From Catenuloplanes atrovinosus (GTDB taxonomy: Bacteria > Actinomycetota > Actinomycetes > Mycobacteriales > Micromonosporaceae): 64,000 bases of DNA. Both the position numbers and the translations under genes were made by a program. The notes beneath the pieces were generated by a model. It was not told where the DNA came from, made no database searches, and worked only from the letters and a program-made list of their open reading frames with translations. The stretch is taken from contig NZ_JAVDYB010000001.1 in assembly GCF_031458235.1 (NCBI RefSeq), forward strand, positions 7,382,501 to 7,446,500. The letters run 5' to 3'. Of this stretch, positions 8,354-49,108 are shown piece after piece (positions within the stretch are counted from its first letter, which is position 1; each line of letters starts with the position of its first letter).

Positions 8354-8406
8354 ACTGATACGTAGAGCACCTTCTACGGCCGCCATTCCGTGCTTTACGT
8401 ATCAGT
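8354..8406 (+). terminator. Large inverted repeat downstream of dnaX
   Basis: ACTGATACGTAGAGCAC (8354-8370) and GTGCTTTACGTATCAGT (8390-8406) are complementary over 17 bp with one G-U pair, with a 19-base loop, starting 13 bp after the dnaX stop. It is AT-richer than its surroundings. It is probably the dnaX terminator, without a T-tract; a degenerate mobile palindrome is the alternative. Confidence 0.6.
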
Positions 8407-38910: not shown

Positions 38911-39008
38911 GGTAGGTACGTTACCGGACGCCTGATCGCCGTCGCGCGCGGGGCGTGGGGTTGCGGAGCGGGGGCGCGGGCGGCCGCGGGCCTGGCATGA
39001 TCGGCGGC

Positions 39009-39719
39009 ATGAGTGTGCACATCGGCGCCAATCCGGGCGAGATCGCCCCGCGGGTCCTCATGCCCGGGGATCCGCTGCGGGCGAAGTGGATCGCGGAGAC
39101 GTTCCTGCAGGATGCGAAGTGCTACTCGACCGTGCGGGGCATGCTGGGGTTCACCGGCACGTACCGTGGGGTCGAGGTGTCGGTCCAGGGCTCCGGCATG
39201 GGCATGCCGTCCGCGACCATCTACGCCCACGAGCTGATCAACGAGTACGGCGTGACGACGCTGATCCGCGTCGGCACCTGCGGCGCGATCGTGGACGACC
39301 TGCAGTTGCGGGACGTGATCGCGGTCAACGGCGCGTCCACCGACTCCAGCATGAACCGGCAGCGCTTCGACGGCCTGATCGACTACGCCCCGGTCGCCGA
39401 CTTCGGCCTGCTCCGCACCGCGGTGACCACGGCCGAGGAGCGCGACATCCCGGTGCGGGTCGGCCCCATCCTGGCCGCCGACCTGTTCTACACGGACCGG
39501 ATGGACCTCTACGACCGCCTCGCCGACTACGGCGTCCTGGCCGTCGAGATGGAGTCCGCCGCCCTCTTCACCACCGCCGCCCGCTACCGCGCCAAGGCCC
39601 TCACCCTCCTCACCGTCAGCGACCACATCAAGCGCGGCGAGAAGACCACCTCCCAGGAACGCGAACAGACCTTCTCCGCCATGATCGAGATCGCCCTCGA
39701 CACCGCCATCACCGCCTGA
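39009..39719 (+). CDS. deoD: Purine-nucleoside phosphorylase, DeoD type
   Basis: A 236-residue enzyme of the hexameric NP-I family, which cleaves (deoxy)purine nucleosides with phosphate for salvage. Motifs: [11 protein letters not shown] at the N-terminus, [31 protein letters not shown] (phosphate and purine pocket), and AVEMESAAL with the conserved Glu-Met-Glu. A C-terminal catalytic Asp is in SDHI. ATG 39009 is chosen by family length and by a -10-like CATGAT seven bases upstream. Confidence 0.96.
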
Positions 39720-39753
39720 CCCCCCACCCCCCACCCCCACCCCCGACCCGCGC

Positions 39754-39808
39754 GATCTAGGGGGAGTCTCGTGAGGTGATCACCAATCACGGGACTTCGC
39801 CCTAGATC
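39754..39808. repeat. GATCTAGGG-type palindromic element, copy A
   Basis: A 55-bp imperfect palindrome with ends GATCTAGGG (39754-39762) and CCCTAGATC (39800-39808). The inner arms GGAGTCTCGTGA and TCACGGGACTTC also pair almost fully, giving a long hairpin. It lies between convergent genes and overlaps the last codons of the AbiEi/DUF559-like gene. The right half is shared with copies B and C (see findings). Confidence 0.85.
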
Positions 39809-40706
39809 GGCGGCGGGCGATCAGTCGGAGGAGCGAGGTCACGAACGGCGCGGGGGCGCGGTACAGGTCGTGTGCGGTGGCGTAGCGCATCGCCCAGCCC
39901 CGGTCGGACAGCCGGTTGTGACGCCACCGGTCCGCCCGCAAGCGGCTCCGGTCGAGATGCGATGCCCCGTCGTATTCGACTCCGATACGCAGTTCCGGGT
40001 TGCCCAGGTCCATCCGATAGTCGAACACCGTGAGCTGCGGCTGGAAACCCTCGATGCCGAGGTCGTGAAAGAGCAGGCGGAGTTCACTCTCCTGCCGGCA
40101 CTCCGCGCGACCGTCGGCGATCCCGACGATCTCCCGCGCCTGTCGAACTCCGCGCAGCCCGTCATGCAGCCGCACCTCGTCGCGCAACTGCTCCACGGAA
40201 CACGCACCGGCGAACAGCGCCGCGTCCACGATCGGGAGGGCTTCGGCTCGCGGCGTCAACCGGGCTAGATCGACAGCCACCCGCGAGGCCGGCGCACAGG
40301 GCACGCCGAAGATCGTCACCGGGTCACCGATCGGCAGTGTGACCTGGTGAGACGCGATCCCTCGCCGTTGCGGGAAGGCGTTCCCCGCCGGGACCATGAG
40401 GTGGACCCGGTCCTCCTCCACCACACCGAAGCCGTACAGCAGCGCAGCGGTGTGAAACCCGACGACCGCCTCGGGCGGCGCCACCGCCAGCGCCGAACGC
40501 ACCTTCTCGAGTACCGTGGGCGGCTCCGCACCGGGCAGGTAGAGCCCATGCTGTGGGCGCTGAATCCGTCCTCTACCCGCCGCCCAATAAGTGGCGCGCT
40601 TGCTGATGCCCGTGGCGCGCCACCCGTCATAGCTGACCGGCACCCTCCCGTCCTCCAACAGGAATGGCACACGCGTCGCATCCCGATACAGATCCATGGC
40701 GCACAC
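39780..40706 (-). CDS. AbiEi-like antitoxin domain / DUF559 (Vsr-like nuclease fold) protein
   Basis: A 308-residue protein. The N-terminal part (WRATGISKRATYWAAGRGRIQRPQHGLYLPG) resembles the winged-helix AbiEi antitoxin domain; the middle (VGFHTAALLYGFG, GIASHQVTLP) is of the same type. The C-terminal DUF559 region has PELRIGVEYDGASH, a PD-(D/E)xK-like nuclease core related to very-short-patch repair endonucleases. GTG 40706 is eight bases after GGAGG; ATG 40712 is an alternative too close to the SD. Such proteins are frequent in actinobacteria and their function is not established. The gene is bracketed by two copies of the GATCTAGGG element. Confidence 0.78.
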   Translation of the reverse strand: MCAMDLYRDATRVPFLLEDGRVPVSYDGWRATGISKRATYWAAGRGRIQRPQHGLYLPGAEPPTVLEKVRSALAVAPPEAVVGFHTAALLYGFGVVEEDRVHLMVPAGNAFPQRRGIASHQVTLPIGDPVTIFGVPCAPASRVAVDLARLTPRAEALPIVDAALFAGACSVEQLRDEVRLHDGLRGVRQAREIVGIADGRAECRQESELRLLFHDLGIEGFQPQLTVFDYRMDLGNPELRIGVEYDGASHLDRSRLRADRWRHNRLSDRGWAMRYATAHDLYRAPAPFVTSLLRLIARRRSRAKSRDW

Positions 40707-40792
40707 ACTCATCGCCTCCACACACCACCCCCACCCCCTGTGGACGACACGCCCCCCATCCACACCCTCCCCTCCCTCCCGACCTCCCCCGC

Positions 40793-40848
40793 GATCTAGG
40801 GCAAAGGCCCGCTTTTGAAGATCAGACAGCAGGAGTACGTCCTAGATC
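40793..40848. repeat. GATCTAGGG-type element, copy B
   Basis: A 56-bp element with ends GATCTAGGG (40793-40801) and TCCTAGATC (40840-40848). It is less self-complementary inside than copies A and C, and is in the opposite orientation to A when the conserved half is aligned. It lies 87 bp upstream of the AbiEi/DUF559-like start and immediately before the GC-rich tandem repeats. Confidence 0.8.
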
Positions 40849-40864
40849 GGCGCGGAGAGGGCGG

Positions 40865-41082
40865 GGCGGCGCGGGGCGCGGGCGGCGCGGGGCGCGGGCG
40901 GCGCGGGGCGCGGGCGGCGCGGGGCGCGGGCGGCGCGGGGCGCGGCGCGGATGCGGAGCGGGGCGCGGATGCGGAGCGGGGCGCGGGTGCGGCGCGGATG
41001 CGGAGCGGGGCGCGGCGCGGATGCGGAGCGGGGTGCGGCGCGGATGCGGAGCGGGGCGCGGGTGCGCGGATGCGGAGCGGGG
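40865..41082. repeat. GC-only tandem repeats (VNTR-like) downstream of tadA
   Basis: Five contiguous copies of a 16-bp unit GGCGGCGCGGGGCGCG (40865-40944) are followed by six copies of GCGGATGCGGAGCGGGG, beginning at 40947, 40965, 40994, 41017, 41040 and 41066. The composition is almost entirely G and C and strongly strand-skewed (G on the plus strand). All frames are open, but no real gene is evident. It is a candidate hypervariable or structure-forming locus. Confidence 0.85.
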
Positions 41083-41136
41083 CGCGGGTGCGGCGCGGAT
41101 CGCGGGGAGCAGGGCCAACGGCGCGCCGGCGGTTCG

Positions 41137-41595
41137 TCAGGCGAAGAACGTGCGGAGGAGCGCGGCGCAATCCGCCTCCAGGACCCCCGCGTAGACCTCG
41201 GGCCGGTGGTTGAGGCGACGATCACGGACCACGTCCCACAGCGACCCGACCGCCCCCGTCTTCGGCTCCCACGCGCCGAAGACCAGCGTCTCCACCCGGG
41301 CCAGCACCAGCGCGCCCGCGCACATCGTGCACGGCTCCAGCGTGACCACCAGCGTGCACCCGCCGAGCCGCCACTCACCGCCGCCGCCGGCGGCGGCTGC
41401 GGCCCGGCGAAGGGCGAGGATCTCGGCGTGGGCGGTCGGGTCGCCGGTCAGCTCGCGTTCGTTGCGGGCCGCCGCCAGTTCGGTGCCGTCCGGGCCGAAG
41501 ATGACTGCTCCGACGGGTACGTCGTCGGCTGCGTCCGCGGCCACCGTGAGGGCCCGCCGCATCCACCGTTCGTGCCGCTCGCGCCGTGTCTCCAC
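41137..41595 (-). CDS. tadA: tRNA adenosine(34) deaminase
   Basis: A 152-residue cytidine-deaminase-fold enzyme that converts A34 to inosine in tRNA-Arg(ACG). Zinc and catalytic residues are intact: HAE (about 56-58) and PCTMC (about 87-91). The N-terminus has MRRALTVAADA and the GAVIFGPDG strand. GTG 41595 lies six bases after a -10-like GACAAT, so it is probably leaderless. The tRNA deaminase-associated gene lies directly upstream on the same strand, a conserved actinobacterial pairing. Confidence 0.95.
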   Translation of the reverse strand: METRRERHERWMRRALTVAADAADDVPVGAVIFGPDGTELAAARNERELTGDPTAHAEILALRRAAAAAGGGGEWRLGGCTLVVTLEPCTMCAGALVLARVETLVFGAWEPKTGAVGSLWDVVRDRRLNHRPEVYAGVLEADCAALLRTFFA

Positions 41596-41646
41596 CCGCG
41601 CATTGTCCCCGGCCCGCGGTCAGGGCCGCGCACCGGGAACGCGTGA

Positions 41647-42195
41647 TCAGTGGCGTAGCGCGTGCTCGCGCAGTTCGTCCACGACCTCGGCGCTGCCGAT
41701 GATGTGCTCGCAGAGTTCGTGGGTGACGTCGGACGGGTGCACGCCCTCCCGGCCGCACATCAGCAGCAGGTCGTGTGAGGAGATGCCCAGGTCGGCCAGG
41801 AGATCGGGGTCGCCGATCGGGTCGATCTCGGGATCGTCGGGTGCGGTGGACGTCGTGGCCGAGCCCTCCTCGACGCCCTCGGTGACCTCGTCGATCTCGT
41901 TGTGGATCTCGATCGCGGGCATCTCGACGTCGCTCAGCAGCATGGCGCCCAGCCGGGACTCCTCGGCGAAGATCGAGTCGGAGCCGAAGACGCGCGGGTC
42001 CTCGCCCTCGTCGAGTCGCATGATCACCAGGTACGAGTCGTCGGACTCGACGAAGAGCAGGCTGAGGTCGGCGTCGTGGTCGACGTCGCGCAGGCGGTCG
42101 GCGATGTCCTCGGTGTCCGCGGCGCCGGTGAGCGGCAGGTCGGAAGCGAACCAACCACTCGGGCCCCGGACCAGGGCGGCAGCGAAGTACGACAT
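41647..42195 (-). CDS. tRNA adenosine deaminase-associated protein
   Basis: A 182-residue acidic protein found next to tadA across actinobacteria. It starts MSYFAAALVRGPSGWFASD (ATG 42195), has a strand-rich first half (LSLLFVESDDSYLVIMRLDEG) and a C-terminal helical part (LGISSHDLLLMCGREGVHPSDV). No catalytic motif is visible; the association with TadA is by conserved neighbourhood only. A longer frame to 42264 is disfavoured because it overlaps the promoter region of the divergent TetR gene. Confidence 0.85.
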   Translation of the reverse strand: MSYFAAALVRGPSGWFASDLPLTGAADTEDIADRLRDVDHDADLSLLFVESDDSYLVIMRLDEGEDPRVFGSDSIFAEESRLGAMLLSDVEMPAIEIHNEIDEVTEGVEEGSATTSTAPDDPEIDPIGDPDLLADLGISSHDLLLMCGREGVHPSDVTHELCEHIIGSAEVVDELREHALRH

Positions 42196-42296
42196 TGGGT
42201 CCCCCCGGAGTCCAGCCGTCGATACGCGTGACGGTAGTCGGTGCAAGGGCCGCAGATAGGGCATTCCGCAAGCCTGAAGAGACGGGGAGGAAATTC

Positions 42297-42325
42297 TTTA
42301 CGACCGGTCGGTCTTTTTGTAGGGT
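42297..42325 (+). promoter_or_regulatory. Promoter with operator in the spacer, TetR/thioesterase operon
   Basis: The -35 TTTACG (42297-42302), a 17-bp spacer and the -10 TAGGGT (42320-42325) place the transcript start at or next to the GTG at 42333. The palindromic GACCGGTCGGTC (42302-42313) lies in the spacer and is a likely TetR operator. Confidence 0.65.
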
Positions 42326-42332
42326 CGTATCC

Positions 42333-42962
42333 GTGGCTCGCGACGGACGACTCGCGCGCGGCGACCGCACCCGGGCCGCCGTGCTGGACACGGCCGTCGC
42401 GCTGGCCACCCGGGACGGGCTGGACGGCCTGTCGCTCGCGCAGGTGGCGGAGGAGCTGGGCATCAGCAAGTCCGCGCTGTTCGCGCACTGGCGCAGCAAG
42501 GAGGATCTCCAGCTCGCCACCATCGAGCACGCGCGGGAGCAGTGGCTGGAGCGGGTGATCAGCCCGGCGCTGCGGGAGCCGCGCGGCGTGCGCCGGCTGA
42601 GGGCCCTGCACGAGCGGCGGATCGCGTTCTACGCGGAGTCCGTACTGCCCGGTGGCTGTTTCTTCGGAAACGTGCAGTTCGAGTTCAACGTCCGGGAAGG
42701 CCCGATCAGGGCGCGGCTCGCCGAGATCTTCACGGACTGGCTCGCGATGCTGGAACGCCTGGCCCGGGAGGCGATCGAGCTCGGCGAGCTGGTCCCGGAC
42801 ACCGACCCGGCGCTGCTGGCGTACGAGTCGGAGGCGTTCGGCCTGGCCGCGGTCATGCAGTCCCGGCTGCTCGGCACCGCGGCCGCCTACGACCTCGCAC
42901 TGCGGTCCATGCGGGCCCGCCTGCGAGCACTGAGCACCGACCCAGAGGAGCACGACGAATGA
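42333..42962 (+). CDS. TetR family transcriptional regulator
   Basis: A 209-residue regulator. The N-terminal HTH reads TRAAVLDTAVALATRDGLDG then LSLAQVAEELGISKSALFAHW, typical of TetR. The C-terminal domain has the CFFGNVQFEFN segment seen in the TetR_C group near lipid/acyl-CoA genes. GTG 42333 lies 7 nt after the -10, so the mRNA is probably leaderless. The thioesterase gene overlaps its stop (ATGA), so it likely controls acyl-CoA hydrolysis and itself through the operator in its own promoter. Confidence 0.92.
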   Translation: MARDGRLARGDRTRAAVLDTAVALATRDGLDGLSLAQVAEELGISKSALFAHWRSKEDLQLATIEHAREQWLERVISPALREPRGVRRLRALHERRIAFYAESVLPGGCFFGNVQFEFNVREGPIRARLAEIFTDWLAMLERLAREAIELGELVPDTDPALLAYESEAFGLAAVMQSRLLGTAAAYDLALRSMRARLRALSTDPEEHDE

Positions 42963-43396
42963 CCACCCCCACCATCGAGTACGGCGCCATCGCCCCGGTC
43001 ACGATCCACTTCGACGATCTCGACGCGCTCGGGGTCGTGCACAACGCCCGGTACGCGGTGCTGGTCGAGCGCGCGATCATCGAGTGGTGGGCCGCGCGCG
43101 GCTGGTCGTTCTCCGGCGGCCGCCCGACCAAGCCGGACGCGTTCAACGTCATCCGGGAGTACACGATCACGTTCCACGTGCCGATCATCGGCACCGGCCG
43201 GGTCGCCGTGCACTTCTGGCTGGAGAAGCTCGGCAACACCAGCGCGGACTACCGCTTCCGGTTCGTCTCCGAGGACGGCTCCGCGGTCTACGCGGAGGGC
43301 CGGCGGATCAACGTGTGCCTCGACCCGGCCACGATGCGCCCGAGCTCGTGGACGGAGGAGGCCCGCGCGGTGGCCAAGGAGATCACCAAGGGGTAG
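42959..43396 (+). CDS. Acyl-CoA thioesterase, hotdog fold (4HBT/YbgC type)
   Basis: A 145-residue hotdog protein. The active-site segment HFDDLDALGVVHNARYAVLVE contains the Asp-(x)n-His/Asn pattern of the 4-hydroxybenzoyl-CoA thioesterase family, followed by the helix and strands (YTITFHVPIIGTGRVAVHFW). ATG 42959 overlaps the TetR stop by 4 bp. It should hydrolyse an acyl-CoA thioester in the cytoplasm; the chain length is unknown. Confidence 0.92.
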   Translation: MTTPTIEYGAIAPVTIHFDDLDALGVVHNARYAVLVERAIIEWWAARGWSFSGGRPTKPDAFNVIREYTITFHVPIIGTGRVAVHFWLEKLGNTSADYRFRFVSEDGSAVYAEGRRINVCLDPATMRPSSWTEEARAVAKEITKG

Positions 43397-43846
43397 TCAC
43401 CAGAGCGGCCAGTCCATCGTCTGGGCCCAGCGGGTCGCCACCGCGTACGCCGCGATCGCCCAGGCGACGCCCACACTGATCGAGATGCCGGCCGCGGCCC
43501 CCCGGTCTCCCGCGCGGGAGAGCACGGCCGCGGCCAGCCAGGCGACGCCGCCCGCGATCAGCGTCCACCACACGTACCCGGCGAAACTCGTCCCGAGCAG
43601 CGGCAGGAGCACCATCCAGAACACGCCGCCGCCCAGCCCGGCCATGAACCAGGACGCGCGCACCGGGTGCGGCTCGCGGTAGGTCGGCCGCAACGGCGCC
43701 GGCGGTGGATAGTCCATCGGCGGGCCGAACCGGTGCGCCTCCCGGGCCGCCACGATCGCGGGCGGCCCGGCGAAGCGATCGTCGCCCGGCTCGAACGGCG
43801 GCGGGGCCGTGAAGGCGGGATCGCCGTAACCGGGCTGTTGCGCCAC
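43397..43846 (-). CDS. Small membrane protein with Pro-rich N-terminus
   Basis: A 149-residue protein. GTG 43846 follows AGGAG by about nine bases. The first 70 residues are Pro/Ala/Gly-rich and cytoplasmic; three hydrophobic segments follow (FMAGLGGGVFWMVLLPLLG, VWWTLIAGGVAWLAAAVLS, ISISVGVAWAIAAYAVAT). The family is not recognised; such proteins are common in Micromonosporaceae. It abuts the thioesterase stop on the opposite strand with no gap. Confidence 0.75.
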   Translation of the reverse strand: MAQQPGYGDPAFTAPPPFEPGDDRFAGPPAIVAAREAHRFGPPMDYPPPAPLRPTYREPHPVRASWFMAGLGGGVFWMVLLPLLGTSFAGYVWWTLIAGGVAWLAAAVLSRAGDRGAAAGISISVGVAWAIAAYAVATRWAQTMDWPLW

Positions 43847-43947
43847 GTGGCCACGCTCCTGGGATGCTCGCGGTTGCCGTCCTTCGAGCCTACTGCCGAA
43901 CGGCGGCCGGACCGCGCACCGCGGCGCCGATCTGCCAAGATGGCCCC

Positions 43948-44733
43948 ATGCAACGGGGAGGAAACCGGGTCTCATCGATGGCCGGCGTCGCGATGACGCT
44001 GGCCGCGACGCTCATGGCAAGCGGCTGCGCCACCGGGCCGGAGCCGGCTGCGCCGGTCTGGCAGGCCGGTTCGCCCGGTTCGTCCGCCATCGCGCCGCCG
44101 TCACCGTCACCGTCCGTGACCGCGTCCCCCACACCGTCGTCGTCGCCGTCAGCCTCTCCGTCCGCGTCCGCCTCCGCGTCGAAGCCCGCGCCGTCGAAAT
44201 CCGCGAAGCCCGCGACGTATACGTACGTGTTCCCGGTCCCCGGCAGCCCGGTCTCGTACCATCCGACGCACTCCGCCTATCCGGCCACCGACATCTTCGC
44301 GAACTGCGGAAACCCGGTGCTGGCCGTCACCGACGGCACGGTCGTCGAGGTCAGCCGCAAGGACGAGTTCGTCAAGGGCAGGCCCGACGGCCCGCTCAAC
44401 GGCGGCTTCTTCGTCTCCCTGGTCGGCGACGACGGCGTCCGCTACTACGGCTCGCACATGTCGCTGGTCGACTCCGGCATCGAGCCGGGCGTCCGGGTCC
44501 GCGCCGGCCAGCGCCTCGGCAACGTCGGCAAGACCGGCAACGCCAACAACGTCTGCCACCTCCACTTCGGCATCTCCCCGGCCTGCGCCGAGGCCGGCGA
44601 CTGGTGGATCCGCCGCGGCGCCGTCTGGCCGGCCCCGTTCCTCGACTCCTGGCGCGAACAGGGCGGCGCCTCCCCGGTCGCCAAGGTCGCGGAGTACACC
44701 CAGGCGAACGGTTGCCCGAAGGCGCCGTACTAA
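43948..44733 (+). CDS. Secreted M23 (LytM) family peptidase-like lipoprotein
   Basis: A 261-residue exported protein. The signal peptide has a lipobox (MASGC), followed by a Ser/Pro/Ala-rich linker (about 50-90) and an M23 domain with ligand motifs HSAYPATD and HLHFG. These are the two conserved zinc motifs (HxxxxxxD and HxH). It should cut peptidoglycan cross-links or act as an EnvC-like activator. ATG 43948 is supported by the -10-like CAAGAT exactly six bases upstream (leaderless); an ATG at 43978 is an alternative. Confidence 0.88.
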   Translation: MQRGGNRVSSMAGVAMTLAATLMASGCATGPEPAAPVWQAGSPGSSAIAPPSPSPSVTASPTPSSSPSASPSASASASKPAPSKSAKPATYTYVFPVPGSPVSYHPTHSAYPATDIFANCGNPVLAVTDGTVVEVSRKDEFVKGRPDGPLNGGFFVSLVGDDGVRYYGSHMSLVDSGIEPGVRVRAGQRLGNVGKTGNANNVCHLHFGISPACAEAGDWWIRRGAVWPAPFLDSWREQGGASPVAKVAEYTQANGCPKAPY

Positions 44734-44980
44734 CGGCACAGATCAGGATTTTCCCGCTTCCGGCGGGGGCACGATCCGCATGCTCCCGCGGGCAAACCGC
44801 GCGGTGTCCTCCGACTCCGCTGGCGCTCCGCTCCGGTCACCGCGCCGGAGCCGGTCCCGCCGCTGGTCCCGGAGAACCCCGCGATCCGGTCACGGCTCCG
44901 GCCGGTGCCGCGAGCTGCGGCGCATCCGCCCACACCGCGCCGCCGTTCCACCGTGGTCCCGCCACGCGGCCGGCCGGCCG
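44734..44980. other. Intergenic region with a hairpin, no gene seen
   Basis: The space between two convergent genes. CCCGC (44755-44759) and GCGGG can form a short stem with loop near the M23 stop, a weak terminator. I see no coding frame with a plausible start and codon pattern. Confidence 0.5.
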
Positions 44981-46108
44981 TTACAGGGCCCACTGGGCGA
45001 AGCGCTTCCGGGACGTACCGTTGATGGTGGTGAAAGCGCCGCCGGCGGCGACCTTGCCGAGAGCGGGACTGGACGCCATCGCGAGCACGCCGAGCACGCC
45101 GTTGCCGTCCGCGATCCACGGGCCCAGCCGGCCGTCGGACGGGTTCGCGGCGGCGAGCTTGACCCGCTTCGTCTGGCCGTCCCGGCAACTGCCCTGGCTG
45201 CCGGTGGCCGCGCTGGCGCAGATGTTGTCGAAGTGGCCGCCGATGTAGAGCGTGCCGGCCAGCAGCGCGAGCGCCTGCGGGTTGCCGTCCATGGTCATGG
45301 TCCAGCGGGTGGTGCCGTCCAGCCCGTACCCGATGACCTTGCCGCCCTGACCGCCGTGCGCGGCGTAGACGCCGGTGGGACTGACCGCGATGCCGTACAC
45401 GATGACCGTGGCCCTGGTGGTGAAGCCGGGGTCCGGCGCGCCGGTGGACGGGCTGAGGGCCGCGATGCGCGGCGCGCCGCCGATGCCGTTGATCTTCTTA
45501 AACCGGCCGCCGACGTAGATCCGGCCGCCGCCGGACGCGAGCGCCTGCACCTGGTCGTCGGCCCTCGGCTGCCAGGCCGGGTCGAGCTTGCCGCTGCCCA
45601 GGCTGAACGCGGCCAGCATGCCCCGGCTCTCGCCGTTGACGTCGGTGAGGTTGCCGCCGGCGTAGAGCCGGTTGCCCTCGATGAGCAGCGCGTACGGCTG
45701 GCCGGTCAGCGTGTGGTTCAGCATCGCGCTGACCGCGCCCGTGGCGCCGTCCAGCTTGGCCAGGCCGTCCCGCCTGGTCGCGCCGATCCGGCCGAACGCG
45801 CCGCCGACGTAGACCGCGCCGCCGCCGGTGGCGATCGCGCGCACGGTGCCGTCCGCGGCGGGCGCCCAGTCGAGCAGCCGGCCGGTCCGCGCGTCGATCG
45901 CGGCGAGGCGGCCGCGCGCGACCTGCGCGCCGTCGACCACCGCGGCCGTGAAGTCGCCGCCGACGTAGATGGTGTCGCCCGCGTACGCCGTGGCCCAGAC
46001 CGTGCCGTTGAACCCGGGCATGCCGGCCGGCGTGGACCCGACCGCGTGCGCGGGCGATCCGGCTCCCACGATCCCGGCCGCGATCATCGTCACGATGATT
46101 CGAGGCAT
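44981..46108 (-). CDS. Secreted beta-propeller-like repeat protein (DUF5122-type)
   Basis: A 375-residue exported protein. ATG 46108 follows AGGA by six bases; the signal peptide ends about SPAHA. The rest is a series of repeats around the pattern IYVGGxF, with IYVGGDFTAAV, VYVGGAFGRIG, LYAGGNLTDVN, IYVGGRFKKIN, LYIGGHFDNIC and VAAGGAFTTIN, spaced about 40-60 residues, as in the delta-60/DUF5122 propellers. A Cys pair (ICASAATGSQGSC) may form a disulphide. A binding or structural role outside the cell is inferred; no enzymatic motif is visible. Confidence 0.82.
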   Translation of the reverse strand: MPRIIVTMIAAGIVGAGSPAHAVGSTPAGMPGFNGTVWATAYAGDTIYVGGDFTAAVVDGAQVARGRLAAIDARTGRLLDWAPAADGTVRAIATGGGAVYVGGAFGRIGATRRDGLAKLDGATGAVSAMLNHTLTGQPYALLIEGNRLYAGGNLTDVNGESRGMLAAFSLGSGKLDPAWQPRADDQVQALASGGGRIYVGGRFKKINGIGGAPRIAALSPSTGAPDPGFTTRATVIVYGIAVSPTGVYAAHGGQGGKVIGYGLDGTTRWTMTMDGNPQALALLAGTLYIGGHFDNICASAATGSQGSCRDGQTKRVKLAAANPSDGRLGPWIADGNGVLGVLAMASSPALGKVAAGGAFTTINGTSRKRFAQWAL

Positions 46109-46271
46109 TATGTTCCTAAAAATCATTTCATAACCGTACGGCGAATGACGGCGTCGTCCGGCGAACGAAAAGGGTGAAAAGCCGCAGAGCTTCGGCGGAG
46201 GCCGCCACGGGCCGAACCGGTGACCCGGAGCCGCGCGTCCGGCTCGGACGGTGTTGTGACACAGTCACCGC

Positions 46272-47258
46272 GTGCGCGTCGCCGTGATCGGAATGGGTCT
46301 CATCGGGGGTTCCGTGCTGCGGGCCCTCGCCGCCGCCGGCCACCGGGTGATCGGCTTCGACGCCGACCCGGCCACCCGCGGCACCGCCCGCACCGCGGCC
46401 GCGGAGGCACCGCCGAGCGCCCGGTGGCAGATCGCGCCGTCCGTCTCCGCCGCGGTCGCGGACGCGGAGCTGTGCGTCATCGCGGTCCCGCTGCCCGCGC
46501 TGGAGATCGTGCTCGATGAGATCACCGGGCGCGGCTACCGCGGCCTGATCACGGACGTCACCTCGGTCAAGATGCCGGTGCTGGACCTGGTCGAGCGCTA
46601 CCTGGAGGGCGGCTCACAGCGCCTGGCCGGCTTCGTCGGCGGGCACCCGATGGCCGGCCGCGAGACGTCCGGCTTCACCGCCGCCGACCCGCGCCTATTC
46701 GACGGCTGCGCCTGGGTGCTCGGCCTGGAGCCCGGCCGCACCATGCTCGGCGACTGGCTGGACCTCGCCGCCCTGGTCACCGAGCTGGGCGCGCGCGCCG
46801 TACCGGCCACCGCCGCCGAGCATGACCGGGCCGTCGCCACGATCAGTCACGTACCGCACCTGGTCGCGTCCGCCGTCGCGGAACAGGCCGCGGACCCGCT
46901 CGCCGCCGCACTCGGCGCCGGCTCGTTCCGCGACGGCACCCGCGTCGCCGCCACCCGCCCCGACCTGGTCGCCGCCATGTGCGGCGGCAACGCCGACGCC
47001 GTGCGCCCGGTGCTCGACGCCGTGATCGAGTCCCTCACCGCCGCCCGCGCCGCACTCGACGCCCGCGACCCGATCGCCGCGCTGCGCCCCTGGCTCGTCC
47101 CCGGCCACCGCACCCGCTCCACCTGGCCCGCCACCGCCGGCGAGCCCCTCCCCATGCGCCCCTCCATCCCCGCCCTGCTCGACCTCGGCCGCGCCGGCGG
47201 CTGGATCACCTCCGTCTCCACGGACCGCACCACCGTCACCGCCGTCCGCCCCGAGTAA
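46272..47258 (+). CDS. tyrA: Prephenate dehydrogenase
   Basis: A 328-residue enzyme of tyrosine synthesis. The Rossmann start VIGMGLIGGSVLRAL is followed by the acidic cofactor residue region (GFDADP), PLPALE, the HPMAGRETSG block with conserved His, and a C-terminal dimerisation helix domain. It oxidatively decarboxylates prephenate to 4-hydroxyphenylpyruvate. GTG 46272 lies six bases after a -10-like CACAGT, so it is probably leaderless. It stands alone, convergent with the M48 peptidase gene. Confidence 0.92.
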   Translation: MRVAVIGMGLIGGSVLRALAAAGHRVIGFDADPATRGTARTAAAEAPPSARWQIAPSVSAAVADAELCVIAVPLPALEIVLDEITGRGYRGLITDVTSVKMPVLDLVERYLEGGSQRLAGFVGGHPMAGRETSGFTAADPRLFDGCAWVLGLEPGRTMLGDWLDLAALVTELGARAVPATAAEHDRAVATISHVPHLVASAVAEQAADPLAAALGAGSFRDGTRVAATRPDLVAAMCGGNADAVRPVLDAVIESLTAARAALDARDPIAALRPWLVPGHRTRSTWPATAGEPLPMRPSIPALLDLGRAGGWITSVSTDRTTVTAVRPE

Positions 47259-47269
47259 CCCAAGCCGCC

Positions 47270-47325
47270 GATCTAGGGCGGATTCGCGCGATTGGAGATC
47301 GCAGCGCCGGAATCGTCCCTAGATC
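47270..47325. repeat. GATCTAGGG-type palindromic element, copy C
   Basis: A 56-bp element between convergent gene ends. The ends GATCTAGGG (47270-47278) and CCCTAGATC (47317-47325) and the inner arms (GCGCGAT...ATCGC, GGATTC...GAATC) make a long hairpin. It overlaps the stop codon of the M48 peptidase gene. Reverse-complemented, its right part matches copy A over about 37 bp with few differences. Confidence 0.85.
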
Positions 47326-49108
47326 AGCGCGGGGTGGTCGGGCGGGAGGCGAGGGTGGCGTCGGCGAGGGCGGACCAGCCGGGGCCGAGTTCCTCGGTGT
47401 CGCCGCCGGCGCGGATCTTGAGGGCGGCGCCGTCGTACAGCGTTATCTCGTAGGTCTTCGGGACGCGACGGGCCAGGCGCGCGTCGGCGAACTCGGTGTA
47501 CGCGACGAACCGGTGGCCGGGCTCGGCGGCGAGCCGCTCGGGCGGGATCGAGGTCAGCATGGCGTGCATGCGCGGGCGCACCTCCCGCTGCCGCAGGCGG
47601 GGGACGCCGGGCACGACGATCAGGCCCGTGTTCAGCAGGACCACGTCGGAGCGCTCGCCGTTGACGATCACGTTCATCAGGCCGGCCACCGCGCCCGCGC
47701 CGGCGGCGCCGGACCGGGGCGTCAGCGGCGGGGCGGAGCCGGCGTCGATGCCGAGGTCGACGAGGTGCTTGCGGGCCTGGTCCACGGTGCTCTCACTCAG
47801 CGCCAGCGACGCGATCTCGCCGAGCTTGAGCGGGCTGCCGTCGCGGCCGATCAGGCGGGGTGGCGCGGACCAGCTGTGCCGCCACCCGGCCACGCCGGCG
47901 TGGATCGCGGCGAGCAGCAGCAGCGACTCGACCTGGCCACGGGTGAACCGGCCGGTGGCGGCCACGTCCAGCGCCTCGGACAGCCCGGCGTCGTCGCGGC
48001 CCAGCGTACGGCCGGTCTCGCGCAGCACCTGGTCGGCGTCCCGGCGCAGCGTGGCGGTACCGGCGGCCGCGGTGAACTCGGGCCACGCCAGCGGGCGCCG
48101 TCCCTCCGCGACGGTGGCGTCCTGCAACGCCCGTGCCGCACCCGCGGGGTCCGTGATCAGCACGGTGGCCGGCGCCGGCGGCTCCTCGGCGCCGGGCGGG
48201 GGATCGGAGCCGGCCGGGAGTCCGCCCAGCGCGGCCACCCGCTCGGTCACCGGCGCATGCGTGTCCCAGCGGTCCGTGTCCGCCGCCTGGCTCCGCAGGT
48301 CGTCCAGTTCGTCCGCCCGGGCGTGCACGAAGTCCGCGAACCCGCCGTAGAGATCATCGGGAACGTATCCGTGCTCCCAGCCCGGCCGTACGTACCGGCG
48401 GAAGAAGAATGACCACGCCGCCTCCAGCACCGGCCGGTCCCGCAACGCCGCGATCGCGGCACCTCGCCCCGCGACCGTGACCGCGAGCCGGTCGGCCGCG
48501 GCCTCCTGCGCGCGCGTCGCGCCGGCGTCGGCCGCCAGGTACAGGTACGCGTACCAGCGCAGGAGGATCGGCATCCGCGGCAACGCGGCGGTGACCGCGA
48601 GCCGCCCCCGGTAGGCGACGCCGCCGGGCGGCGAGAAGTGGCCCAGCTCGTGCGCCAGCATCGCGCGCGCCCGGTCCACCGTCATGATCTGCAGCAGCGG
48701 CAGTCCGACGTAGAGCGTGCGCACGCCGCCGCGCAGGCCCAGCAGGCGCACGTCCTCCGCGACCCGCACGGTGGCGTCCGGCAGCAGCCGGATGTGGTCG
48801 GGCGCGCGCGTGCCGGCGTGGTCCGCGATCTCCCGGACCACGCGCCACAGCTCGGGCGCGCGCTCCGGCGCGACCGGGATGCCGTGCGGGCGGGAGCGGC
48901 GGTACGCCAGGCCGCGCCCCAGCGCCAGCGCGGCGACACCGACGCCGAGAGTGATGAGGGGCAGCGCGAGCTTGACCGCGCCCTGCCCGGCGACCCACAT
49001 GCTCGCGACGAGGAGCAGGACCGCGACGAGAGCGAGCTGCGCCAGCGCGACCAGGTAGAACCCGGCGAGCAACACCACCGAGAGGGCGGCCCGTAGCGTG
49101 GCGGTCAT
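47324..49108 (-). CDS. Membrane-bound M48 family metallopeptidase
   Basis: A 594-residue protein. Two N-terminal TM segments (about 8-35 and 45-65) are followed by the M48 domain with the zinc motif HELGHF (His153-His157, Glu154) and a distal Glu in EAAADRLAV. The C-terminal 300 residues are soluble and Pro/Ala-rich. ATG 49108 follows GGGGAGGATC. It resembles HtpX/Ste24-type proteases that process membrane proteins, but the substrate is unknown. Its stop overlaps repeat copy C. Confidence 0.88.
   Translation of the reverse strand: MTATLRAALSVVLLAGFYLVALAQLALVAVLLLVASMWVAGQGAVKLALPLITLGVGVAALALGRGLAYRRSRPHGIPVAPERAPELWRVVREIADHAGTRAPDHIRLLPDATVRVAEDVRLLGLRGGVRTLYVGLPLLQIMTVDRARAMLAHELGHFSPPGGVAYRGRLAVTAALPRMPILLRWYAYLYLAADAGATRAQEAAADRLAVTVAGRGAAIAALRDRPVLEAAWSFFFRRYVRPGWEHGYVPDDLYGGFADFVHARADELDDLRSQAADTDRWDTHAPVTERVAALGGLPAGSDPPPGAEEPPAPATVLITDPAGAARALQDATVAEGRRPLAWPEFTAAAGTATLRRDADQVLRETGRTLGRDDAGLSEALDVAATGRFTRGQVESLLLLAAIHAGVAGWRHSWSAPPRLIGRDGSPLKLGEIASLALSESTVDQARKHLVDLGIDAGSAPPLTPRSGAAGAGAVAGLMNVIVNGERSDVVLLNTGLIVVPGVPRLRQREVRPRMHAMLTSIPPERLAAEPGHRFVAYTEFADARLARRVPKTYEITLYDGAALKIRAGGDTEELGPGWSALADATLASRPTTPR

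What the first reader, a model, noticed from the sequence alone, without database searches (positions are those of the whole stretch)
39754..47325. A repeated ~56-bp imperfect palindrome family with GATCTAGGG ... CCCTAGATC ends
Three copies (39754-39808, 40793-40848, 47270-47325) share near-identical ends and, once aligned in the same orientation (B and C reversed), a common half: GATC, then xyCAA, then about CGxG, ending TTxGCCCTAGATCG. Two copies sit exactly between convergent genes and overlap stop codons, and two fold into long hairpins. They are too similar and too structured for chance, and I know of no named family with these ends. They could be a mobile palindrome (MITE/REP-like), bidirectional terminators or protein-binding sites.
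Basis: partly seen in the sequence, partly recalled or inferred. Interest (0 to 1): 0.72.

Follow-up and report, generated by a model that had tools for sequence, protein, structure and literature searches.

The report
Genome-wide palindromes with a partner nuclease
Short mirror-image DNA repeats scattered through soil bacteria appear to belong to an uncharacterised gene that looks like a DNA-cutting enzyme and sits between two copies of the repeat; relatives of the gene are paired with other repeats, which suggests an undescribed kind of repeat-spreading or repeat-maintaining system.

Summary
The genome (8.9 Mb, Micromonosporaceae by inference) holds 47 copies with both 8-bp ends exact plus 3 with one change; 33 of 47 lie between convergent genes by my own gene calls. 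Ends are almost invariant (0.4% departures), the inner 40 bp vary (16%).

The key result is a partner. Copies 1 and 2 flank a 305-aa gene (window 39780-40697, minus strand): an AbiEi-like part fused to a Vsr/EDxHD-like nuclease. Its close homologues (11 of 300 family genomes) have such palindromes on both sides in 10 of 11 loci, and all 11 genomes hold 18-580 palindromes, against 14 of 289 others with 18 or more (p about 1e-13). Eight of ten of those others searched have a distant paralogue between two copies of another palindrome, in five shown to be the genome's dispersed one. Two predicted cognate families proved multi-copy. Four same-genus genomes lack this gene and these palindromes; the matching gaps that were read hold none.

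It works like a RAYT/REP system (REPtron) but with an unrelated enzyme. My searches found no description. Binding, cutting and mobilisation are inferred.

The parts
39754..39808 (.). Palindrome copy 1 (55 bp), 3' flank of the nuclease gene; contains its stop codon
40793..40848 (.). Palindrome copy 2 (56 bp), 5' flank of the nuclease gene (95 bases upstream of its ATG); central asymmetry opposite to copy 1
47270..47325 (.). Palindrome copy 3 (56 bp), dispersed copy between a prephenate dehydrogenase gene (+) and a gene with no Pfam hit (-)
39780..40697 (-). Partner gene, 305 aa: AbiEi-like N-terminal part (about residues 13-181) plus Vsr/EDxHD-like nuclease domain (about 217-291); motif residues E203, D230, E241, H247, D256
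   Evidence: start codon chosen from homologues
39721..39749 (.). C-rich tandem repeat next to copy 1
40848..41106 (.). G-rich tandem repeat (about 250 bp) abutting copy 2
8354..8406 (.). Copy of a second palindrome family (GATACGTAGAGCAC...) of the same genome, whose own nuclease paralogue lies outside the window (contig position 601983-602756)

Best explanation
A nuclease-palindrome system that works like a REPtron. The gene at 39780-40697 encodes a protein with an AbiEi-like DNA-binding part and a Vsr/EDxHD-type nuclease. The 56-bp palindrome (about 64 bp with CGYC/GRCG) is its cognate site, probably bound by a dimer, one subunit per half: the nearly invariant outer 12 bp and the central GGAGATC are the contacts, and the inner arms are lineage-specific. 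The gene is kept between two (mostly inverted) copies of its site. Over evolutionary time its activity spreads and maintains copies across the genome, which survive mainly between convergent genes where they do least harm and can double as terminators. SHOWN here by computation: linkage, co-occurrence, matching palindrome/nuclease types, multi-copy status of predicted cognate sites, palindrome-free gaps in relatives, invariant catalytic-type residues. INFERRED: binding, cutting, and break-repair copying as the way of spreading.
For: (1) Linkage: of 11 close-homologue loci, 9 have palindromes within about 350 bp on both sides, L179 has both but the upstream one about 750 bp away, L210 shows one about 725 bp upstream and is cut off by a contig end on the other side. 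(2) Co-occurrence: 11 of 11 genomes with the close homologue have >=18 palindromes, 14 of 289 without it (p=1.2e-13; cut-offs chosen after seeing the lists). (3) Prediction test: of 10 genomes with many palindromes but no close homologue, 8 have a paralogue (29-36% identity) between two palindromes of the GATCAAGG-ended kind; in 5 of the 8 (G195, G286, G327, G012, G052) the dispersed copies listed are of that same type, in G248, G274 and G011 I saw only the copies at the gene; G292 has a different palindrome there and G044 no gene found. (4) Two further predicted cognate palindromes are multi-copy: half-sites forward/reverse 45/44 in G003, 21/28 in G002, 5/8 in G001, 9/10 in G004, 0/0 in the own genome; GATACGTRGAGCAC 10/9 in the own genome, 4/6 in G003, 0 in three others. 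(5) A quick tree of 33 nucleases largely groups palindrome types. (6) E203, R207, D230, E241, H247, D256 are invariant in 33 sequences, 24-55% identical to the window's. (7) Palindrome-free orthologous gaps in G001-G004. (8) AbiEi binds an imperfect inverted repeat of about 49 bp with perfect outer 11 bp (passages of PMC3985639); the EDxHD enzyme I-Bth0305I dimerises on nearly 60 bp (passages of PMC3943268): a similar size.
Against: No binding, cutting or movement was observed; no target-site duplication or exact insertion boundary was found. The close homologue sits next to deoD in 8 of 11 genomes, so the gene itself looks vertically inherited rather than hopping. Among 76 non-redundant nuclease loci of all subfamilies (partial matches included) 23 have no scored palindrome on either side (the score misses weak ones, including the window's own). 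G041 has 34-35 palindromes but only a 32% paralogue was found (fragmented assembly), and G044 has 21 with none found. In the tree L179, with the 57-bp type, falls outside the 56-bp group. Near-invariant ends with diverse interiors fit selection on sites as well as ongoing spreading. In G003 the palindrome sits inside a larger repeat of about 200 bp, so the mobile unit there may be longer.
Confidence: 0.68

Rival explanations
1. The palindromes are chromosomal binding sites, not mobile elements: the protein is a regulator or chromosome-organising factor (AbiEi-like) whose sites are kept by selection, for example as bidirectional gene-end insulators or as decoys that titrate a dangerous nuclease.
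For: Ends depart from consensus in 0.4% of positions against 16% inside over 49 copies; 33 of 47 between convergent genes against 37 of 218 gaps without a copy; AbiEi is a DNA-binding repressor of its own promoter.
Against: Catalytic-type residues of the nuclease are invariant. Positions turn over: of 32 G002 copies of a related family, 3 had both flanks matching a G003 copy site (one of them the nuclease locus itself), 4 had one flank, 25 none; own copies are missing at the gaps read in four same-genus genomes.
Confidence: 0.2
2. The palindromes are bidirectional terminators (intrinsic or Rho-assisted), and the link with the nuclease gene is incidental.
For: Convergent placement, strong hairpins on both strands of the window's three copies, and C-rich flanks upstream of the hairpin on both strands. 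Relatives have other hairpins at several of the same sites.
Against: No T-tract noticed beside the copies printed; little arm covariation within the genome; fixed length and near-invariant ends are not needed for a terminator; the skew is also seen at the tandem- and divergent-gene copies that I looked at by eye; it cannot explain the nuclease linkage and co-occurrence.
Confidence: 0.06
3. MITE or solo-end remnants of a conventional insertion sequence, with the nuclease a passenger.
For: Dispersed, lineage-specific, short, inverted-repeat structure; a larger repeat of about 200 bp surrounds the copies in G003.
Against: No target-site duplication seen; decay of ends is nearly absent; the gene found between copies in many subfamilies is this nuclease. 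I did not search the genomes for transposases with matching ends.
Confidence: 0.06

Closest known systems
REP sequences and RAYT / TnpA-REP (REPtron)
   Same: Gene flanked by copies of its own dispersed palindrome, mostly inverted here; palindromes intergenic and often between convergent genes; enzyme and palindrome types go together. PMC3733652 (abstract, part 1 of 8 and passages seen) and PMC8266576 (abstract and outline seen).
   Different: Partner has no Y1/HUH transposase match; it is an AbiEi-like plus Vsr/EDxHD-like nuclease. The palindromes are about 47-69 bp (longer with their flanking arms), not 20-40 bp, and lack the GTAG motif.
CGTC-tagged REPs (Di Nocera et al. 2013, PMC3733652)
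   Same: Palindrome edge reads CGYC, often CGTC; dispersed, intergenic.
   Different: Theirs are short stem-loops with CGTC unpaired at one end, reported from other phyla ('Actinobacteria' has 0 occurrences in the text) and without a dedicated enzyme. Here CGYC pairs with GRCG at both ends. The shared letters may be coincidence.
AbiEi antitoxins (type IV AbiE system)
   Same: N-terminal part matches AbiEi models (PADLOC 2.1e-14); the known AbiEi binding site is an imperfect palindrome of about 49 bp.
   Different: Carries a nuclease domain; the window neighbours are deoD and a cytidine-deaminase-like (tadA) gene, no AbiEii toxin; sites are dispersed, not only in its own promoter.
EDxHD (Vsr-fold) homing endonucleases such as I-Bth0305I
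   Same: Profile match to 3hrl (8e-7) and weakly to 3r3p, I-Bth0305I (0.035); E, D, E-x-D-G, H, D residues; that enzyme dimerises on a target of nearly 60 bp.
   Different: No intron seen; the gene is flanked by, rather than splitting, its presumed site; the presumed site is dispersed in tens to hundreds of copies.

Membership tests
REPtron (RAYT/TnpA-REP with REPs) | Gene flanked by copies of the dispersed palindrome | tested here: met
   Both sides in 10 of 11 close-homologue loci, one of these with the upstream copy about 750 bp away; own locus
REPtron (RAYT/TnpA-REP with REPs) | Partner is a HUH Y1 transposase of the IS200/IS605 kind | tested here: not met
   Pfam scan of 10 partner proteins: no Y1 transposase hit, only AbiEi, MTES_1575, DUF559 and weak others
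REPtron (RAYT/TnpA-REP with REPs) | GTAG tetranucleotide at one end | tested here: not met
   Conserved edges are CGYC/GRCG with GATCTAGG/CCTAGATC
MITE | Target-site duplication at both ends | tested here: inconclusive
   Flanks of 47 copies show CGYC/GRCG, complementary not direct; no direct duplication noticed by eye; exact boundaries unknown
AbiE type IV toxin-antitoxin | Adjacent AbiEii nucleotidyltransferase toxin | tested here: not met
   The two neighbours in the window are deoD and a deaminase gene; other loci not checked for it
EDxHD homing endonuclease | EDxHD catalytic residues on a Vsr fold | tested here: inconclusive
   Invariant E203, D230, E241, H247, D256 and profile match to 3hrl/3r3p; AlphaFold model poor (mean pLDDT 52), its best PDB matches being AbiEi 6y8q (E 1.3e-3) and, at rank 19 and E 2.8, 3r3p
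EDxHD homing endonuclease | Cuts an allele lacking the element and copies itself into it | not testable with these tools
   Needs enzyme assays and crosses
Known RNA family | Match to an Rfam model | tested here: not met
   0 matches at gathering score, window 39000-48000

The most novel reading that the evidence does not exclude
The AbiEi-DUF559/MTES_1575 proteins of these actinobacteria are in general the enzymes of a distinct class of selfish or semi-domesticated nuclease-palindrome elements: each paralogue recognises its own palindrome of about 50-80 bp, spreads it by cutting and break repair through non-coding DNA, and leaves skewed tandem-repeat scars around the sites. Orphan 'AbiEi antitoxin' labels on such proteins would then be wrong.
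Probability: 0.45. Interest if true: 0.93.

Novelty: categorically new. Interest (0 to 1): 0.85.

Why it matters
It gives a testable role to a family of uncharacterised nuclease genes found in many of the genomes searched, explains an unnamed class of dispersed palindromes (up to 580 copies in one genome), and would be a second, independent solution to the problem that REP/RAYT systems pose: how a single resident enzyme and a short palindrome come to populate a genome. If the enzymes bind palindromes of 50-80 bp with paralogue-specific sequence, they are also a source of long-site DNA-binding proteins.

Tried and rejected
Decaying MITE: set aside because end bases are nearly invariant. RNA hairpin under base-pair selection: within the own genome 46 copies show little arm covariation and several fixed mismatches, so pairing of the inner arms is not what is kept; flank pairs -2, -5 and -7 to -9, and inner pairs 12 and 13, show modest excess over shuffles. 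Plain conservation of positions across genera: flanking genes of own copies and of copies in 85 other loci are hardly shared (5 flank-flank blastp pairs in all; the only one above 40% identity was the nuclease itself, which is how it was found). Known RNA: none. Viral relatives of the protein: none. PDB by single sequence: none. NCBIfam: only weak sub-cutoff hits. AlphaFold with three sequences gave a poor model (pLDDT 52), so the fold search is only weak support. RAYT or other transposase genes in the own genome were not searched for. Literature: ten searches gave no description of this pairing; only open PMC papers are held, so it may be in print elsewhere. For PMC3733652 I saw the abstract, part 1 of 8 and passages; for PMC3710099, PMC3985639 and PMC3943268 passages; for PMC8266576 abstract and outline; other papers only as search listings.

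Limits of the counts: gene calls are from a simple codon-score script of my own, not a gene finder; at least one 'gap without copy' (L173) is probably a copy-bearing gap split by a false small gene. The >=18-copy and E<=1e-84 cut-offs were chosen after seeing the lists. In one search only up to 7 candidates per genome were scored. The pattern finds only families with GATCWAGG ends. Of the 14 exceptional genomes I searched 10 again; G040, G041, G162 and G311 were not in that call (G041 had been searched; G040, G162 and G311 have matches of E<=1e-58). In one search, 46 G003 and 32 G002 places were used; the list they came from was cut off by the tool. The 76 loci include partial matches. Orientation of flanking copies and absence of target duplications were judged by eye.
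Full report
OBSERVATION. The three palindromes are real and exactly placed. Their six 8-bp ends are the only GATCTAGG in the window, against 0.53 expected. The host genome is a single 8,906,892-bp contig; the window is bases 7382501-7446500. Pattern GATCTAGG-N25..55-CCTAGATC occurs 47 times, 46 of them exactly 56 bp, with none for the reversed control. With up to 3 mismatches in the ends at fixed 56 bp there are 59: 46 exact, 3 with one change, and 10 more against a control of 7. Over the 49 copies with at most one change the 16 end positions depart from consensus in 0.4% of cells and the inner 40 in 16%; mean pairwise inner identity is 76%. The conserved block runs outward as CGYC before and GRCG after.

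PLACEMENT. With a simple codon-score gene caller, 33 of 47 copies lie between convergent genes, 6 and 4 between tandem genes, 4 between divergent genes, none inside a called gene; gaps without a copy in the same stretches are convergent in 37 of 218 cases (p=2e-12). Convergent gaps with a copy are long (median 390 bp, n=28), hold tandem repeats in 25 of 28 cases, and are C-rich on the left and G-rich on the right; convergent gaps without a copy (n=17) have a median of 65 bp, hold repeats in 2 of 17 and have no skew. The same left-C/right-G skew is visible by eye at the tandem- and divergent-gene copies that I looked at (flanks, placements), so it seems to belong to the palindrome rather than to transcription. 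In the window a tandem array of about 250 bp abuts copy 2.

RELATIVES. Of 101 genomes searched (own included) 14 carry the exact pattern; own 47, G050 92, G030 68, G041 35, G013 22, G034 18, eight others 1 to 8; the four same-genus genomes G001-G004 none. Inner arms differ from genome to genome while the ends and, in the 56-bp type, mostly the centre GGAGATC stay. Named loci with structured copies come from Micromonospora, Asanoa, Hamadaea, Phytohabitans, Planosporangium and uncultured Micromonosporaceae, from which I infer the family of the window; 35 of the 120 stretches came from other phyla and were mostly unstructured chance matches.

THE PARTNER GENE. Looking for genes shared between neighbours of copies in different genomes gave one clear pair: the gene between copies 1 and 2, and a homologue in L067 that also lies between two copies. 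The window protein matches MTES_1575 (a Vsr-like nuclease family; sub-cutoff, 30.9 of 38.2 bits), DUF559 and AbiEi_4 (both sub-cutoff) in Pfam, and AbiEi models in PADLOC (2.1e-14). In an alignment of 33 homologues E203, R207, D230, E241, G244, H247, D256 and R259 are among the invariant residues. A profile finds 3hrl (8e-7) and weakly 3r3p, the EDxHD homing endonuclease I-Bth0305I (0.035). The AlphaFold model is poor (pLDDT 52), but its best PDB match is an AbiEi antitoxin (6y8q, 1.3e-3) and 3r3p appears at rank 19.

LINKAGE. In 300 genomes of the family the protein gives a close group (E<=1e-84; 50-57% identity to the window, the window's own aside) in 11 genomes. At these 11 loci, palindromes with GATCTAGG or GATCAAGG ends are within about 350 bp on both sides in 9; L179 has both, the upstream one about 750 bp off; L210 shows one, about 725 bp upstream, and its other side is cut by a contig end. 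By reading the centres, the two flanking copies point in opposite directions in 8 of the 9 loci; L178 is the exception. The same 11 genomes hold 18, 21, 23, 37, 41, 49, 65, 92, 123, 414 and 580 palindromes; of the other 289 only 14 hold 18 or more (p=1.2e-13).

THE EXCEPTIONS TEST THE IDEA. I searched 10 of those 14 for distant paralogues. In G195, G248, G274, G286 and G327 a paralogue of 33-36% identity sits between two GATCAAGGAGTTTG- or AGTTCG-type palindromes (in G274 and G286 one of the two has an end base changed); in G012 (29%) between two GATCAAGGGAAGACTC-type; in G052 (30%) between two GATCAAGGGA-type; in G011 (31%) between two GATCAAGGGAACGG/GGGATGG-type palindromes. For G195, G286, G327, G012 and G052 the dispersed copies listed are of the same type; for G248, G274 and G011 I saw only the copies at the gene. 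G292 has an unrelated palindrome at its paralogue and G044 has no gene found. Many, not all, of the more distant paralogues (about 30%) in other genomes also sit beside long palindromes of various sequence. Over 76 non-redundant nuclease loci, strong palindromes are on both sides in 21, one side in 32, none in 23, at a background density of 0.14 per kb; the score misses the window's own locus, so this is an underestimate. A quick tree of 33 nucleases largely groups rows by palindrome type, for example eight 56-bp GATCWAGGG rows and five GAGTTG/CAGTTG rows; the 57-bp L179 falls outside the first.

PREDICTIONS. If the palindrome beside a distant paralogue is its cognate element it should be multi-copy. 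It is: GATCATTGACCG/GATCAATCAGTGG-type half-sites number 5/8, 21/28, 45/44 and 9/10 (forward/reverse) in G001-G004 and 0 in the own genome. GATACGTRGAGCAC, next to a second paralogue of the own genome, occurs 10/9 times there, including window 8354-8406, and 4/6 times in G003, 0 in the other three.

TURNOVER. G001-G004 share the surrounding genes at about 81-94% DNA identity. The aligned pieces of deoD and the deaminase gene lie 39, 42, 138 and 95 bases apart there, while the own genome has about 1.4 kb, the palindrome-nuclease-palindrome block. At the gap of the third window copy no palindrome is seen in G001, G002 and G003; in G004 the two genes are no longer adjacent. G001 there reads GATCAAGATCTAGATCTAGATC, which could be a collapsed remnant of two ends or chance. 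Three further own copies are absent at the matching gaps read: all four relatives at the first, G001 and G002 at the second (the only ones fetched there), and G001, G002, G004 and the part read of G003 at the third. Ordinary short hairpins stand at several of these sites. Degenerate remnants in G001-G004 were not searched for genome-wide. Of 32 G002 copies of the 69-bp palindrome, both flanks match a G003 copy site in 3 (one being the nuclease locus), one flank in 4, none in 25. Yet the close-group gene lies next to deoD in 8 of 11 genomes: the gene tends to stay or be lost, and the copies move.

MECHANISM. AbiEi represses its own promoter by binding inverted repeats with a perfect 11-bp outer part that extend to 23 bp each with 3 bp between (passages of PMC3985639). 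I-Bth0305I dimerises on nearly 60 bp (passages of PMC3943268). The 56-64 bp palindromes with near-invariant outer ends are what a dimer of a fused AbiEi/EDxHD protein might be expected to bind. I infer binding, cleavage in or beside the site, and copying by break repair; the tandem repeats around the sites could be repair scars. None of these steps is shown. A pure binding-site role, without movement, remains the main rival.

COMPARISON. The arrangement works like a REPtron, but the enzyme has no Y1-transposase match and the palindromes lack GTAG and are longer, so it is not filed there. It is not an AbiE toxin-antitoxin pair (no AbiEii beside the window gene) and not a standard homing endonuclease (gene flanked by its presumed site). 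Ten literature searches found no description (listed under tried and rejected). I rate it categorically new because no known repeat family I could find has this kind of partner, while its way of working has a close analogue.

Noticed in passing
window 44744-44884: A stretch of about 120 bp between convergent genes matches a repeat listed at more than 100 places in G001-G004 (roughly 75-93% identity); it does not resemble the palindromes. Its copy number in the own genome was not tested.
   Followed up: no
window 8354-8406: One copy of a second palindrome family (GATACGTAGAGCAC) of the own genome, whose nuclease paralogue is at contig position 601983-602756.
   Followed up: partly
L287-L326, L359-L364 (G003): Many 69-bp palindromes are identical or nearly so and sit in the middle of a larger repeat of about 200 bp with GAAATWTC-like and TTTATC-like ends, suggesting recent spread of a longer unit.
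   Followed up: partly
own genome, contig 1509011/1509156, 2918850/2919000, 3733828/3734033, 5852918/5853051: Four pairs of palindromes have starts 133-205 bp apart in one gap, with near-identical left flanks in one pair, as if duplicated in tandem.
   Followed up: no
L242 (G003), deoD-deaminase gap: A different long inverted repeat (about TAGAGCCTGTATCGACGTG...CACGTCGATACAAGCTCTA) sits at this gap in G003, possibly another palindrome family.
   Followed up: no
L240 (G001), gap of the third window copy: The gap reads GATCAAGATCTAGATCTAGATC, which could be a collapsed remnant of two palindrome ends or chance.
   Followed up: no
G042 and G054; named loci L016, L034, L043, L079, L126, L132: Shorter 48-bp palindromes with the same GATCTAGG ends but other arms (Hamadaea and Asanoa among the named loci); their partner gene was not identified.
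   Followed up: no
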